Origin: Chelatococcus reniformis
Lineage (GTDB): Bacteria; Pseudomonadota; Alphaproteobacteria; Rhizobiales; Beijerinckiaceae
NCBI RefSeq assembly: GCF_014640075.1
Contig: NZ_BMGG01000009.1
Coordinates: forward strand, 62,001-126,000
Direction of reading: 5' to 3'
DNA: 64,000 nt
Under the pieces are notes generated by a model. That model searched no databases and was not told the DNA's origin. It was given only the letters and a program-made list of their open reading frames with translations. A program made the position numbers and the translations under genes. Shown here one piece after another: positions 1,196 through 61,431 of this stretch (its first letter is position 1; the number at the start of each line of letters is the position of its first letter).

Positions 1196-1299
1196 TAGAG
1201 CATTTCGGCGGTTCGAAGAAACGCCGAAATGCTCTATCTAATTGTTTTGTCGCGTTTTCTTCACGCGAACCGGCGTCCACTTCGCTCGAAAACGCTCTA
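1196..1299 (+). repeat. 102-bp MITE-like element, copy 1
   Basis: The unit is flanked by TA on both sides (left context CTAG, right context CTAA). Its ends are near-inverted (GAGCATTTC and, reversed, GAGCGTTTTC). It folds as two stem-loops: a first with arms CATTTCGGCG/CGCCGAAATG and a second with arms GCGTTTTC/GAAAACGC. The loop of the first stem is inverted relative to the other four copies. The right TA belongs to the TAG stop codon of the neighbouring minus-strand gene. The rest of 984-1195 shows no gene. Confidence 0.85.
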
Positions 1300-2091
1300 A
1301 TCACGTCTGAACACCACCGTCGCGGTCCAGCCGAAGAGCAGCGAGAGCGCTGCTGCGGCGAGGCCGTAGACCAGCGGCTGGTTGTGGGCGAGATCGACGA
1401 CCGCCTGTTCGAAACCGGTCTTGACCACGTGGAAGCGCGTCGACGAGCGCGCCACGAAGGTTCCGCCGGAGAGCACCGTGGCCTCCACCTGGTAGCGACC
1501 CACGGGGGTCGTCGCCGGCAGCGGGAAGGTGGCGCGGAAGACGTTGGGCGATACGAAGCGAGCCGTGCTCTTCTCGACGAAGAGGCCGTTCTCGCCATTC
1601 AGCCGCCGCAGCGCCTCGCGGAAGCGGGCATTGGCGGCATCCCGTGCCGCATCGACGCCCGGTGGCGTGAGCTCGGCCTCCAGACCGAGGCCGTAGGCGA
1701 GCCGCGCCTGGCGGGAGGCGATCTCGTCCACCGGCCGCGTCGATACGACCGCCAGATAGATGGGCAGGTCGACGAAGCGCCGCTGCCGCCGGTTCACGTA
1801 GACGAAGCCCAGGCGCTGCTTTTCGCGCACGAGCGTGGTCGCGCGCGGTCCTCGCACGGTGACGACGACGTCGTAAGGCGCCTGCCGCGCGGGCGTGGCG
1901 AGATCCTTCTCGATGACGCCGAAGAGGGCGACGTCGACGCCGGAGTAGGTGGAGGTGATAGCGATCTGGGTCGTCGAGAGCGAGGTCACCAGGTTCTCGC
2001 CGCGCGCCGGTCCGGCGGCCAGCGTCAGTGCCAGTGGCAGGGTGCAGCGGAGGGCGGCCCCACGTCCGCGCGAGCTTGCCCGGGCCGTCAT
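1297..2091 (-). CDS. TIGR02186 family membrane-anchored protein
   Basis: 264 residues with an N-terminal hydrophobic signal or anchor (CTLPLALTLAAGPARG), a beta-rich extracytoplasmic body and a C-terminal membrane helix (LVYGLAAAALSLLFGW) followed by FRRD. This matches the TIGR02186 family, which in alphaproteobacteria is typically encoded next to a TauE/SafE exporter. The ATG overlaps the stop of that exporter gene (ATGA), so translation is probably coupled. Function is unknown; a role in periplasmic handling of the exported sulfur compound is inference. The TAG stop is shared with the end of a MITE copy. Confidence 0.8.
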   Translation of the reverse strand: MTARASSRGRGAALRCTLPLALTLAAGPARGENLVTSLSTTQIAITSTYSGVDVALFGVIEKDLATPARQAPYDVVVTVRGPRATTLVREKQRLGFVYVNRRQRRFVDLPIYLAVVSTRPVDEIASRQARLAYGLGLEAELTPPGVDAARDAANARFREALRRLNGENGLFVEKSTARFVSPNVFRATFPLPATTPVGRYQVEATVLSGGTFVARSSTRFHVVKTGFEQAVVDLAHNQPLVYGLAAAALSLLFGWTATVVFRRD

Positions 2092-36611: not shown

Positions 36612-36715
36612 TAGAGCGTTTTCGAGCGAAGTGGATGCCGGTTCGCGTGAAGAAAACGCGACAAATCAAACAGATAGAGTATTTCGGCGATTCGAAGAAA
36701 CGCAGAAATGCTCTA
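36612..36715 (-). repeat. 102-bp MITE-like element, copy 2
   Basis: Same element as copy 1 in reverse orientation, flanked by CTAG on both sides. Its right TA is the TA of the murA TAG stop codon. Confidence 0.88.
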
Positions 36716-38011
36716 GTGCTCGCCGGAGAGGCGCTCGATCTGCGCTCCGCAGCGGCCCAGCTTGGCTTCCAGGGCCTCGAAGCCGCGATCCAGATGGTAG
36801 ACGCGGTTGACCGTGGTCTCGCCTTCGGCCGCGAGCGCCGCGATGACGAGGGAGACCGAGGCCCGCAGGTCGGTGGCCATGACCGGCGCTCCGGTCAGCT
36901 TGCTGACGCCGTCGACGAAGGCGATATCGCCGTCGAGACGGATGCGAGCGCCCAGGCGGGCCAACTCCTGCACATGCATGAAGCGGTTCTCGAAAATCGT
37001 CTCGCGGATGCGGCTTGTGCCCTTGCCGCGGGTCATCAGCGCCATAAGCTGGGCCTGCAGGTCGGTCGGGAAGCCGGGGAAGGGCTCGGTGGTGACGTCG
37101 ACCGCGGCGATGCCGTGACCGTTGCGACGCACGCGGATGCCCTCGTTGGTGGCGGTCACCTCGGTGCCGCTCTGGCCCAGCACGTCCAGGGCCGACTGGA
37201 GGAGCACGGGCCGCGCGCCCTCCAGCAGCACGTCGCCGCCGGTCATGGCGACGGCCATGGCATAGGTGCCGGTCTCGATACGGTCGGGCAGCACCGTGTG
37301 GCTGGCGCCGCCGAGCTTGGCCACGCCCTCGACGACGATCCGCGACTGTCCGGCGCCGGCGATCTTGGCGCCCATGGCGTTGAGGCATTCGGCCAGGTCA
37401 ACCACCTCGGGCTCGCGGGCGGCGTTGTCGATGACCGTGGTGCCGTCGGCGAGCGCGGCGGCCATGAGGGCCGTGTGGGTGCCGCCGACGGTGACTTTGG
37501 AGAAGTTGATCTCGGCGCCCTTGAGACCGGATGTCGGCGCCCTGGCGAGCACGTAGCCGCCTTCGATGTCGACCTTCGCGCCAAGCTTCTCCATCACCAT
37601 CAGCAGCAGATCGACCGGGCGCGTGCCGATGGCGCAGCCGCCAGGCAACGACACCCGGGCGCTGCCCATGCGGGCGACCAGCGGCGCCAGCACCCAGAAG
37701 CTGGCGCGCATCTTGGAGACGAGCTCGTAGGGGGCCGTCGTGTCGATGACGGAGCGCGCCCGGAGGCGGATCGACTGGCCTGTCTCAGCCGTCTGGCCCG
37801 GCCGCTTGCCGGCGATGCCGTGATCGACGCCGTGGTTGCTCAGGATGCGGAGCAGTTGCTGGACGTCGGCCAGACGGGGCACATTGTGCAGCTCCAGCGT
37901 CTCGTCCGTCAGCAGGCTCGCGATCATCAGAGGCAGCGCCGCGTTCTTCGCGCCGGAAATCGGGATGACGCCGTTGAGCTCGGAGCCTCCCGTGATGCGG
38001 ATGCGGTCCAT
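36713..38011 (-). CDS. murA: UDP-N-acetylglucosamine 1-carboxyvinyltransferase
   Basis: 432 residues. Starts [20 protein letters not shown] with the KNAALP substrate Lys/Asn, has the catalytic Cys in [16 protein letters not shown] (about residue 124) and the late [13 protein letters not shown] motif. It adds enolpyruvyl from PEP to UDP-GlcNAc, the first committed step of peptidoglycan synthesis, in the cytoplasm. The Cys indicates fosfomycin sensitivity of the enzyme type. The TAG stop is provided at the junction with a MITE copy, without loss of C-terminal residues (ends ERLSGEH). Confidence 0.97.
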
Positions 38012-45024: not shown

Positions 45025-45128
45025 TAGAGCATTTCCGCGTTTCTTCGAATCGCCGAAATGCTCTATCGGTTTGATTTGTCGCGTTTTCTTCACGCGAACC
45101 GGCGTCCACTTCGCTCGAAAACGCTCTA
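45025..45128 (+). repeat. 102-bp MITE-like element, copy 3
   Basis: Flanked by CTAG on both sides, same orientation as copies 1 and 4. Downstream bases 45,129-45,251 encode a short hydrophobic C-terminus-like frame (TVKTLPVIVLMLVALAMAPS), perhaps a small gene remnant; I do not annotate it as a gene. Confidence 0.88.
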
Positions 45129-55592: not shown

Positions 55593-56627
55593 ATGGCAGG
55601 CGAGAAATCGACAGGCTCCAAGCCAACTGCTCCGGCGAGGCCAACTGCTCCGGCGAGGCGAGCTGCCACGGCCGGCGCCGCGCCAGCGAAGCCGTCGACG
55701 GCGGACTCCAGCACGACGCAACCGGCCAACGCCGCGGCCGAAGCGCCAACGCCGGCCCGTCCCGCGGCGGCCAGCGCGTCATCGACGACGGCTTTGCCGC
55801 CAACCGTCCAGCCGGCAACGGCCAAATCCCCTGCCGCCAAACCCCCAGCCGCCAAACCCCCAGCCACCAAGATCCCGGCGACCAAGCCCCCGGCGACCAA
55901 GCCCCCGTCGGGCCAAACTCCTGCGGCAAAGCGCCCTGTCGCCAGGGCCGCCGTCGCCAAGGCGCCGGCTTCCGTGCTTCCGAAGGTCGAGCCGGCGGTC
56001 GAACCCGTAGCCGTCAAGCCGGAGCCCTCGCCGACGGGCGCGCAGTCGCCGGCGCCAAGTGCCATGGCCCCGTCGGAAGGCGCGGCCTCGGTTTTGTCCC
56101 GCGCGACGGCCGACGCCCGGCGGATCCAGCCCCCGGCGTCACCGAAGCCCGACCGCACGGCCGCTGCCAGGCAGCGTACGGCCGCGCGTTTGGCGGAGGA
56201 TCCGCGGGCGGTCGCCAAAGCCGCAGGACTCAACGAGGAAGACGCGCTGGAGCCGCTCGCGGTTGCCGAGGCCTTCGTTGCGGCGACCCAGGAGTTCGCT
56301 CATCCCGCCACGCTGGTGCAGCCTGTCGCCGCGGTGTTCGAGACCCGCTTCGGTCCCAGGACCCTAGCCGCCTCGCAAAGCCTGATGGAGCTCAACGCCA
56401 AGGTTCTCGAGCTTTGGCGCGCGCAGGCCGAGTCGACCCTGTCGCTCTGGCAGGGCATGGTCGGCGTGACCTCGCTCAGCGAGGCCGTCCAGCTGCAGAC
56501 GAGCCACCTGCGCAGGCACTACGAGGAGACCAGCCGACGGGCCCGGGACATTGCCCAGACGGCTGCGCGGATGGCCTCGGGCCTGGCGCTCGAGGCCAAG
56601 GCCGAGATTCCGCCCAGGGAGCGCTGA
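55593..56627 (+). CDS. Phasin-domain protein with Lys/Pro/Ala-rich histone-like N-terminal tail
   Basis: 344 residues. Residues 1 to about 210 are low complexity: PTAPARPTAPAR at the start (an 18-bp tandem duplication), then AAKPPAAKPPATKIPATKPP and further Lys/Pro/Ala repeats. Residues about 235-335 form a helical phasin domain (LAVAEAFVAATQEFAHPATL, SLMELNAKVLELWRAQAEST and LWQGMVGVTSLSEAV). The tail resembles the AAKP tails of PhaF and PhaM that bind DNA. GAGGGGA lies before ATG 55593. It follows the first phasin on the same strand. Confidence 0.8.
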   Translation: MAGEKSTGSKPTAPARPTAPARRAATAGAAPAKPSTADSSTTQPANAAAEAPTPARPAAASASSTTALPPTVQPATAKSPAAKPPAAKPPATKIPATKPPATKPPSGQTPAAKRPVARAAVAKAPASVLPKVEPAVEPVAVKPEPSPTGAQSPAPSAMAPSEGAASVLSRATADARRIQPPASPKPDRTAAARQRTAARLAEDPRAVAKAAGLNEEDALEPLAVAEAFVAATQEFAHPATLVQPVAAVFETRFGPRTLAASQSLMELNAKVLELWRAQAESTLSLWQGMVGVTSLSEAVQLQTSHLRRHYEETSRRARDIAQTAARMASGLALEAKAEIPPRER

Positions 56628-56716
56628 CGCGCCAGCTTGGCGTGGACAAATGATGGGGACAAATTGCGGAGATCTTGCCATGGGCGCAGTTTGCCCATAG
56701 GTTCCGCGTCGCCGAT

Positions 56717-56793
56717 GCAGCTGTAGCTCAGTTGGTTAGAGCGCTAGATTGTGGATCTAGAGGTCCCCCGTTCGAGCCGGGGCAGCTGTACCA
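56717..56793 (+). tRNA. tRNA-His (anticodon GTG)
   Basis: 77 nt with encoded CCA. Anticodon stem-loop CTAGATTGTGGATCTAG with anticodon GTG, D-arm AGCTCAGTTGGTTAGAGC, T-arm CCCCGTTCGAGCCGGGG. The acceptor pairs GCAGCTG with CAGCTGT, so position 1:72 is G:U, the discriminator is A73, and no encoded G-1 opposes a C73. Confidence 0.95.
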
Positions 56794-56938
56794 TCGTCTC
56801 GAAGAATCCCGACAGAACAATTTTCTCACATGGCGGGCTCGCGTTGACCCGATTGCTGTGACGAAGCGTTACGCGACAGCGTCCAGGCGGTGAGCTTCGT
56901 TCGGACGGTGTGGCTCAATGCCGCACGAGTGGGGGATC

Positions 56939-57786
56939 ATGCGGTTTATCGAGACGTTTCAGATCTATGACTTCGTTGATACCACCGCCAGCTTGTTCTT
57001 TGCCTTTGTCCTGGGCAGAATCATTGGCGTCGAGCGCCAATACCGACAGCGAACGGCGGGGCTGCGCACCAACGTCCTAGAGCATTTCCGCGTTTCTTCG
57101 AATCGCCGAAATGCTCTATCTATTTGATTTGTCGCGTTTTCTTCACGCGAACCGGCGTCCACTTCGCTCGAAAACGCTCTAGTGGCCGTCGGCGTCGCCG
57201 CATTCGTCGATCTGGCAATGCGCATCTACGGTGCCGAAGGTGCGGCGCGCGTGATCTCCTACGTGGTCTCGGGCATCGGGTTTCTGGGCGCCGGTGTGAT
57301 CATGAAGGAGGGGTTGAATATCCTCGGACTGAACACGGCGGCGAACTGTGGTGCTCGGCCGCCGAGGGCGCGTGCGCCGGCGCGGATATGGCGGCGCAAG
57401 CGGCGCTGGTGACGCTGTTCGTCATGGCCGGCAACACCCTGCTCCGGCCGCTGGTGAACGCCATCAACCGTATCCCGCTCGACGAAGAAGCCTCGGAAGC
57501 GATCTACGAGGTGAGCGTCGTGACTGCGCGGGAGGCCGCGGACCGCGCCAAGGAGGAACTCGTTGCGGCAGGTGCCGAGCATCTCGCACGCCACCTGGAA
57601 CTCCAGCACCGGCGACTGATGCGGGCTTCGCGCCAGCCTGTGTCGGTGATGCTCCCGTCCAACGGCGAATGCTCCAGAGAATTTAAGATCCAGAAGCACA
57701 GCGCATCAAGCCTTTGCTATGAGCAGGGCTCTTGTCCAAAACGCTGGCTCACCTTCTTGGATCATGCTCTGGGTCGATACCGGTAA
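56939..57786 (+). pseudogene. MgtC/SapB family protein gene, split by MITE and frameshifted
   Basis: The first part reads MRFIETFQIYDFVDTTASLF and VLGRIIGVERQYRQRTAGLR then TNVL to 57,079, where the MITE enters. After the element it resumes exactly in frame: VAVGVAAFVDLAMRIYGAEG, SYVVSGIGFLGAGVIMKEGL, NTAA. One base is missing at 57,344-57,345, after which another frame gives LWCSAAEGACAGADMAAQAA and LVTLFVMAGNTLLRPLVNAI. The C-terminus after about 57,600 no longer resembles MgtC. MgtC proteins are inner-membrane factors for survival under low Mg2+ or acid; this copy should be inactive. Confidence 0.88.
57078..57181 (+). repeat. 102-bp MITE-like element, copy 4 (inside mgtC)
   Basis: Flanked by CTAG on both sides with the TA duplicated at 57,078-79 and 57,180-81. 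Removing 102 bp (element plus one TA) restores an uninterrupted mgtC reading frame across the junction. The element's own frames carry stops. Confidence 0.92.
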
Positions 57787-58197
57787 CAGCGCCCCTCGGG
57801 CGCCACGTCTAGTGCGGCCGGATGCGTTTGCTGGACCGGGGCATATGCGCGGCAGGCCGAAGTGCTGTGCGACGGACGGGGGCTCGCGGCGACGACATAA
57901 CTCTGGGCTATGCGAACAGATCGCCGGCCGCCCCGGAGTTGAGAGGCTCCGGTGTGGAGCATCCGGCATTCGTCAAGTTGGGGCCGAGCTCCAGGCGAAA
58001 GTCGAAAACCTCCGGCCCCATGAGCAACACTTGATGTCGTGTGACACGTGGGATCTAAGGATCCGATTAGCGACGGGAATCGGATCGGCCAGACCTGCCA
58101 GTCCGCTCCCGATGCTGCCGCACCGAGGCGCAGACAGCCGGTCCCGCCGCCCGGTTCCGTCCGGCTTGATCCGAACAGGCTCCGGGGAAGGGCGCCC
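57787..58197. other. 410-bp gene-free region
   Basis: Lies between the ruined mgtC and the 3' end of mucR. Open frames here are Arg/Pro-rich and unconvincing. It may contain decayed remains of the mgtC neighbourhood, but I recognise no protein segment. Confidence 0.4.
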
Positions 58198-61327: not shown

Positions 61328-61431
61328 TAGAGCGTTTTCGAGCGAAGTGGACACCGGTTCGCGTGAAGAAAACGCGATAAATCAAACAGATAGAGCGCTT
61401 CGGCGATTCGAAGAAACGCGGAAATGCTCTA
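61328..61431 (-). repeat. 102-bp MITE-like element, copy 5 (between lutA and lutB)
   Basis: Reverse orientation, left context CTAG, right context CTAC. It lies 17 bp upstream of lutB ATG, inside the lut operon, leaving the lutB ribosome-binding site intact. Confidence 0.85.

What the first reader, a model, noticed from the sequence alone, without database searches (positions are those of the whole stretch)
56939..57786. mgtC broken by a MITE whose precise removal restores the frame
Seen in sequence: the MgtC protein reads through TNVL to CTA at 57,077, then 102 bp intervene, then the frame resumes at CTA 57,179 with VAVGVAAF. The TA is duplicated at both ends. A second, independent lesion is a missing base at 57,344-57,345. 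The first lesion proves that this intergenic repeat moves, and the second shows that the gene has since been under no selection.
Basis: seen in the sequence. Interest (0 to 1): 0.8.

Follow-up and report, generated by a model that had tools for sequence, protein, structure and literature searches.

The report
Mobile repeat that settles on stop codons
A 100-letter DNA repeat has jumped into a bacterial gene and broken it, but about half of the copies examined in this genome sit exactly on the end signal of a gene, where the repeat's own first letter keeps that signal intact.

Summary
Coding for an MgtC-like protein (56939-57079) is interrupted by a 100-bp element (57080-57179) between TA (CTAG) repeats and resumes at 57179. 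Both genus mates held (Camelimonas lactis, C. fluminis) have the uninterrupted site, so the repeat moves. The gain of 102 bp is 34 codons: it brings an in-frame stop, not a frameshift. A one-base loss and decay of the C-terminus are further lesions, order unknown.

The element is a high-copy (about 250), two-hairpin repeat of a family spread through Hyphomicrobiales, resembling CIR and Bru-RS repeats; the review read in part leaves CIR's target duplication and mobility unsettled.

New here: the target is (C)TA(G/A), and 43 of 79 copies examined sit exactly on a neighbouring gene's stop codon, against 11% of comparable sites. Both ends begin with G, so TA plus element re-forms TAG. Of 41 coding flanks open into an element, 40 are in stop-codon phase; mgtC is the exception. 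Purifying selection on a TA-targeting element is the plain explanation; active targeting is not excluded. The transposase is not identified.

The parts
56939..57079 (+). left piece of the broken mgtC-like gene (MgtC profile positions 1-29)
57077..57080 (.). left copy of the CTAG direct repeat (TA 57078-57079 = minimal duplicated target)
   Evidence: target statistics
57080..57179 (+). 100-bp non-autonomous element, 1 difference from the consensus of 56 copies; ends GAGCATTTCC / GAGCGTTTTC read inward
57078..57118 (+). left hairpin of the element
   Evidence: RNA fold z -5.0, 0 of 200 shuffles as good; covariation
57100..57104 (+). GAATC, a GANTC (CcrM-type) site in the loop of the left hairpin
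   Evidence: kept in 68 of 79 own copies and 16 of 21 order-wide sequences
57134..57177 (+). right hairpin of the element
57179..57182 (.). right copy of the CTAG direct repeat
57179..57343 (+). right piece of mgtC (profile positions 30-82), same frame as the left piece
57346..57564 (+). third piece of mgtC in the next frame (residues 103-175 of intact relatives); one base fewer than relatives just before it
57702..57770 (.). divergent copy of another repeat family where the MgtC C-terminus should be
   Evidence: 73% to places in L048 and L013/L059
1198..1297 (+). another copy of the element, on the stop codon of the gene called at 1297-2091 (-)
36614..36713 (-). another copy, on the stop codon of murA 36713-38011 (-); murA of both genus mates ends one codon earlier
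45027..45126 (+). another copy, not on a stop codon by the gene caller
61330..61429 (-). another copy, not on a stop codon by the gene caller
36713..38011 (-). murA, full length (TIGR01072 positions 1-416 of 416), its TAG made of TA plus the element's first G

Best explanation
A 100-bp non-autonomous element (two hairpins, short imperfect inverted ends GAGCRTTTYC) transposes in trans into (C)TA(G/A) sites and duplicates the TA. One such event, recent by the element's near-identity to its consensus, put a copy into an mgtC-like gene and gave it an in-frame stop. Other coding insertions have mostly been purged. The surviving copies lie in intergenic DNA, almost never between two gene starts, and very often exactly on a stop codon: TAG and TAA are themselves TA(R) targets, and because both element ends begin with G the gene keeps an in-frame TAG. 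Shown: the empty site at mgtC, the target motif, the stop-codon nesting, full-length proteins at 6 of 10 stop-nested genes checked, covarying hairpins. Inferred: a DDE transposase supplied by an IS (elements that I would call IS5/IS427-like, with TA-flanked ends beginning GAG, are present; IS630-type transposases too), and purifying selection as the cause of the nesting.
For: Empty site in 2 of 2 genus mates. No insert in the 80 best of 307 named relatives. 56 distinct copies: complete TA on the left in 52, C before it in 47; on the right T in 51, A in 47, then G or A in 49. Young burst: 34 of the 56 copies within 2 differences of the consensus, though most of the 56 were picked for similarity. 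40 of 41 coding flanks open into the element have the phase that makes TA+G a stop; the exception is mgtC. 43 of 79 copies on a stop codon against 57 of 513 non-coding YTAR sites, p 6e-21; motif-matched 36 of 53 against 6.8 expected; in stretches not picked by similarity 12 of 26. Other genomes: 22 of 22 and 5 of 6 coding flanks in the stop phase. In 6 of 10 stop-nested genes scanned the protein reaches within 3 positions of the end of a family profile that it matches above cut-off. Hairpins: 15 of 26 pairs with changes on both sides, 0 of 500 shuffles.
Against: No autonomous element with the same ends was found among 3 IS630-type and 10 PF01609-type hits or in the stretches fetched, but only about a fifth of the genome was read and other transposase families were not searched. 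None of the 66 relatives whose site could be read has CTA at that codon (CTG 50, CTT 10, CTC 5, TTG 1), so the TA target must have arisen in this lineage. A precise empty site was seen at one locus only. The gene caller is crude (coding share 0.80), so missed genes inflate the intergenic denominator. The stop-codon share does not rise with copy age (22 of 35 at most 2 differences, 21 of 44 older, p 0.47), which slow purging alone would not predict. A cruder classifier on 30 loci gave 6 stop-phase against 6 other-phase flanks. A test with longer flanks flagged three other copies (L020, L080, L096) as coding on both sides; the gene caller puts separate genes on either side there, and in L080 the neighbour's called start falls inside the element.
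Confidence: 0.72

Rival explanations
1. mgtC was already a pseudogene (frameshift, C-terminal loss) when the element landed in it; the insertion is a passenger and not the cause.
For: It is the only clear in-gene copy among 79 examined; the gene has two other lesions; MgtC-family paralogues remain elsewhere in the genome (C2:509070-509465, 100 bits; C2:29873-30211, 61 bits).
Against: Differences from the mates are still concentrated at third codon positions, so the gene was not dead for long; nothing dates the other lesions before the element.
Confidence: 0.4
2. The copies are kept on stop codons because they work there: a hairpin directly behind the stop codon ends, protects or processes the mRNA.
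For: Two hairpins conserved by compensatory change across the order; stop-nesting about equally strong in young and old copies; only 1 of 79 copies lies between two gene starts.
Against: No terminator-like stem with a T run in 56600-57900; 36 of 79 copies are not on a stop codon; hairpin covariation could serve transposition instead.
Confidence: 0.3
3. The element is moved by an IS630/Tc1-type transposase, as proposed for RUP of pneumococcus.
For: TA target and duplication; a cited title reports IS630 preferring TA in CTAG (Tenzen and Ohtsubo 1991, seen only as a reference-list entry in PMC2170065); 3 IS630-type hits in the genome.
Against: None of the three shows matching ends (one of them, L067, was not in the end-pairing test). 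The YTAR target and TA duplication fit IS711 of Brucella as well (PMC3163539 passages), and PF01609-type elements here carry ends beginning TA-GAG.
Confidence: 0.25
4. Single-strand (HUH, RAYT-like) transposition: the element inserts behind CTA without a duplication and its own right end carries CTA.
For: Conserved hairpins; left CTA better conserved than right TAG; strong strand polarity in one related genome.
Against: One weak Y1 transposase match in the window's genome (23.6 bits, cut-off 23) and none in G002, G057, G094 or G079; no relation of orientation to GC skew among 55 copies of the window's genome (p 0.48).
Confidence: 0.08
5. Assembly or sequencing error produced the insert or the missing base.
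For: Draft assembly of 39 contigs; reads not available.
Against: The insert is flanked by unique coding sequence inside a 429-kb contig and sits at the family's usual target motif.
Confidence: 0.03

Closest known systems
[quoted passage not shown] not held, known to me only through reviews PMC2229807, part 1 of 3 plus passages, and PMC10969869, passages)
   Same: Size about 100 bp, two stem-loop arms joined by a linker, GANTC at or near a loop, TA at the termini, reported from Caulobacter and Brucella.
   Different: The reviews call CIR strictly intergenic, give its target duplication as unknown and say all six frames have stops. Here there is an intragenic copy with an empty site, a TA target, one frame open through the element in this copy, and nesting on stop codons.
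Bru-RS1 / Bru-RS2 of Brucella (Halling and Bricker 1994, reference entry only; passages in PMC3163539 and PMC10800456)
   Same: 103 and 106 bp palindromic repeats in Hyphomicrobiales; IS711 inserts there at YTAR with TA duplication. Here an IS sits at the CTAG beside an element copy (L070).
   Different: The passages describe Bru-RS as a place where an IS inserts, not as a thing that moves.
RIME, Rhizobium-specific intergenic mosaic elements (reference entry and passages in PMC2573895)
   Same: Repeated structured intergenic elements of rhizobia.
   Different: Sequence not available; homology not tested.
RUP, ERIC and Correia elements (review PMC2229807, part 1 of 3 and passages)
   Same: Small non-autonomous repeats with TA at the ends and target duplication.
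   Different: Other hosts; no stop-codon nesting in the passages I read.
QMITE2 of Coxiella (passages of PMC5896051)
   Same: A MITE mainly in 3' untranslated regions and intergenic regions and a hot spot for an IS.
   Different: Longer, variable direct repeats (7-11 nt); the passages do not place it on stop codons through a TA target.

Membership tests
MITE (non-autonomous DDE element) | short, without transposase, many near-identical copies | tested here: met
   100 bp; 156 exact core matches; 21 full-length copies in 564 kb
MITE (non-autonomous DDE element) | terminal inverted repeats | tested here: met
   GAGCATTTCC / GAGCGTTTTC, 8 of 10 identical; short and imperfect
MITE (non-autonomous DDE element) | target-site duplication with an empty site elsewhere | tested here: met
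   TA at both ends in 53 of 79 copies with flanks; empty site at mgtC in 2 of 2 mates, which however read CTG and not CTA there
MITE (non-autonomous DDE element) | autonomous partner with the same ends | tested here: inconclusive
   none in the transposase hits and stretches read; about a fifth of the genome read
CIR | two stem-loop arms joined by a linker | tested here: met
CIR | GANTC motif at or near a terminal loop | tested here: met
   68 of 79 own copies, 16 of 21 order-wide
CIR | TA at the termini | tested here: met
CIR | strictly intergenic (as the reviews report) | tested here: not met
   the mgtC copy is intragenic; no other clear case among 79
CIR | stops in all six frames (as the review reports) | tested here: not met
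   the minus-strand ORF 56965-57225 runs through this copy
CIR | sequence homology to published CIR | not testable with these tools
   the paper is not held
Bru-RS | 103-106 bp palindromic repeat of Brucella | tested here: inconclusive
   the covariance model finds 135 and 62 matches in two environmental Brucella genomes; identity with Bru-RS not tested
RUP-like, IS630-mobilised | ends shared with an IS630 of the same genome | tested here: inconclusive
   3 IS630-type hits, no matching ends found

The most novel reading that the evidence does not exclude
The element homes to stop codons: target choice itself, by the transposase or through coupling to translation termination or transcript ends, prefers in-frame TAG/TAA, and the element ends evolved G to rebuild TAG, giving a parasite that inserts at coding genes without harming them.
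Probability: 0.12. Interest if true: 0.85.

Novelty: new variant of a known kind. Interest (0 to 1): 0.55.

Why it matters
CIR and Bru-RS type repeats are abundant in Hyphomicrobiales, and the review passages I read treat the movement of CIR as unsettled. An intragenic copy with an empty site, a defined TA target and stop-codon nesting in several genera make the question testable: find the transposase, and ask whether stop codons are chosen or only survive.

Tried and rejected
Autonomous partner: searched IS630-type (3 hits), PF01609-type (10 hits) and Y1 transposases, looked for element ends in all 13 DDE-type loci, for inverted ends with TA around 9 of them and for paired ends around ORFs in the fetched stretches (33 pairs, 20 of them printed with long inner frames, none recognised by me as a transposase; those frames were not run against a family library). 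Not found.

Element-derived peptides in proteins, as in Rickettsia palindromic elements: not supported; with 150-bp flanks and threshold 0.05 only the mgtC copy has coding flanks in a consistent frame. With 300-bp flanks one search flagged L020, L080 and L096 instead; separate genes lie on either side there.

Replication-strand orientation: no relation to GC skew in the window's genome.

Rfam: no family at gathering score in the window except two tRNAs. First literature searches for RIME and Rhizobiales MITEs found nothing.

A classifier based on GC at codon positions gave 6 stop-phase and 6 other-phase flanks on 30 loci; I replaced it by a codon-usage classifier like that (5 of 6; of 60 flanks 24 had no TAG boundary or were too short, 24 no coding frame, 6 a gene reading away). 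Both are reported.

Full report
What was checked. The window lies in a 6.81-Mb draft genome (G000:C9:62001-126000). The interrupted gene is MgtC-family: Pfam MgtC positions 1-29 lie left of the insert and 30-82 right of it. In both mates the two flanks abut at the insertion point, and the 80 best of 307 named relatives match over 696-723 bp, without the insert. The 102-bp gain is a multiple of three; the reading frame is the same on both sides and the break is a stop inside the element. The window has one base fewer than the mates near 57344-57345. After residue 175 of the intact relatives the similarity ends, apart from a weak 20-residue match (9 of 20), and a different, divergent repeat lies at 57702-57770. 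Two other MgtC-family stretches exist in the genome, at C2:509070-509465 and C2:29873-30211.

Age of the damage. Against the L033 orthologue the differences by codon position are 15/10/24 in 46 codons, 10/8/30 in 55 codons and 20/19/37 in 73 codons. The gene was therefore long under selection. The element copy differs from the consensus by one base. The order of the three lesions is open. None of the 66 relatives whose site could be read carries CTA there (CTG 50, CTT 10, CTC 5, TTG 1; 14 of 80 not read by the pattern), so the TA target probably appeared in this lineage before the insertion.

The element. It is 100 bp with inward ends GAGCATTTCC and GAGCGTTTTC and two hairpins (RNA fold z -5.0, 0 of 200 shuffles). 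In 564 kb (the window plus 25 stretches picked without regard to hits) there are 21 full-length copies, which extrapolates to about 254; a 20-base core has 156 exact matches in the whole genome and none when read backward. Of 56 distinct copies 34 are within two differences of the consensus, but most of the 56 came from a best-match list. Flanks: complete left TA in 52 of 56, C before it in 47; right T in 51 and A in 47; then G 37 or A 12. So the target is mostly CTAG or CTAA.

Family. BLAST with this copy finds matches in 38 of 150 sampled genomes of the order, the window's own included, and in 25 of 90 genera. A covariance model of 21 sequences from the order finds matches in 10 of 10 Hyphomicrobiales genomes reached through named loci: Mesorhizobium loti 150 and Bosea psychrotolerans 149 (only 150 candidates scored per genome), Brucella pseudogrignonensis 135, Camelimonas fluminis 106, Rhizobium lusitanum 90, B. 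gallinifaecis 62, Shinella zoogloeoides 39, C. lactis 35, Afipia massiliensis 15, Phyllobacterium myrsinacearum 1; and in 0 of 3 others (Roseomonas mucosa, Stenotrophomonas rhizophila, [Pseudomonas] boreopolis). The hairpins covary: 86.4% of cells paired, 15 of 26 pairs with a change on both sides, 0 of 500 shuffles, slid controls 34.6-47.9% paired; related sequences can exceed shuffles without structure, but the slid controls do not rise. A GANTC site in the left loop is kept in 68 of 79 own copies and 16 of 21 order-wide sequences.

Stop codons. For 79 distinct copies with 300-bp flanks (no two share a flank word) I asked which of the 158 flanks are coding and open up to the element. 41 are; in 40 the phase makes the flanking TA plus the element's first G an in-frame TAG; the one exception is mgtC. 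A classifier of the same kind applied to 679 YTAR sites of the sample labels 105 as lying inside genes, so it is not blind to other phases. With a simple gene caller, 43 of 79 copies lie on a stop codon; among YTAR sites outside coding sequence 57 of 513 do (11%), p 6e-21. In the stretches not picked by similarity it is 12 of 26. Matched for the exact NTAN motif, 36 of 53 copies against 6.8 expected; for CTAG alone 23 of 32 copies against 24 of 161 sites. The inferred empty-site codon is TAG in 32, TAA in 4 and not readable in 7 of 43. The caller covers only 80% of the sequence, so missed genes inflate the intergenic count; I expect the excess to shrink but not vanish (my judgement, not computed).

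Are the stop-nested genes whole? Ten of the 43 were scanned against NCBIfam. Six match a family above cut-off to within three positions of its end (murA 416/416, thymidylate synthase 264/264, nadC 268/269, 3-hydroxyisobutyrate dehydrogenase 288/288, acrylyl-CoA reductase 324/325, YbaL-type transporter 544/547); D-amino acid dehydrogenase (L080) stops 13 positions short; three are uninformative. murA of both mates ends one codon earlier, with TGA.

Other genomes. With a classifier of the same kind, 22 of 22 coding flanks at TAG boundaries in 65 loci of other genomes are in the stop phase (the nine loci of the genus mates gave none, and a few G057 loci overlap), and 5 of 6 in 30 loci of ten named species; a cruder classifier on those 30 loci gave 6 against 6. 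Most flanks in these sets were not usable.

Selection or targeting. 22 of 35 young copies and 21 of 44 older ones are stop-nested (p 0.47), and only 1 of 79 copies lies between two gene starts. Fast purging of harmful insertions explains this; so would targeting or a 3'-end function.

How it moves. TA duplication at YTAR is described for IS711, which inserts at Bru-RS1 in Brucella (PMC3163539, passages). In this genome PF01609-type transposase loci have TA-GAGGCTGTT ends (both ends in L074, one end in L068 and in L072), which I would call IS5/IS427-like from memory, and one IS, which I would place near IS1182 from memory, sits at the CTAG beside an element copy (L070). No element with the full ends of the repeat was found, so an IS5-type helper is a lead, not a result; IS630 is the main rival.

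Known or new. The reviews describe CIR as two arms with a GANTC loop, TA at the termini, target duplication unknown, mobility needing more information (PMC2229807, part 1 of 3 and passages) and strictly intergenic (PMC10969869, passages). This family works like CIR and matches most listed features, but two reported features are not met and the CIR sequences could not be compared, so I do not file it as a proven CIR. Three searches that could have listed stop-codon nesting of such repeats showed no title or abstract on it; only open-licence papers were searched and most listed papers were not opened.

Noticed in passing
G057:C1 (related genome, one contig of 4.8 Mb): The core of the element lies almost wholly on one strand (1 forward, 20 reverse exact matches; 44 of 46 BLAST matches minus) along the chromosome; in 20 sampled stretches GC skew is mostly negative from 0.48 to 2.4 Mb and closer to zero after that. 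Unexplained.
   Followed up: partly
L070:616-2080 (G000:C3): An IS of the PF01609 class with 16 of 16 matching end bases sits at the CTAG beside a copy of the element, flanked by TA on both sides.
   Followed up: partly
G057:C1:3419500-3419718 and G094:C2:24203-24399: Tandem arrays of the right half of the element with a period of about 63-64 bases.
   Followed up: no
window 57702-57770: A second, divergent repeat family (73% to L048:10776-10844 and to L013/L059).
   Followed up: no
window 56965-57225 (-): A minus-strand frame is open through the whole element; element plus TA is 102 bp, a multiple of three.
   Followed up: partly
L075, L077 (G000:C3:10650-11092): Runs of unknown bases inside a transposase gene (X in the translation), perhaps scaffold gaps at IS copies.
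   Followed up: no
window 56717-56793: A tRNA-His (GTG) gene lies just upstream of the broken mgtC.
   Followed up: no
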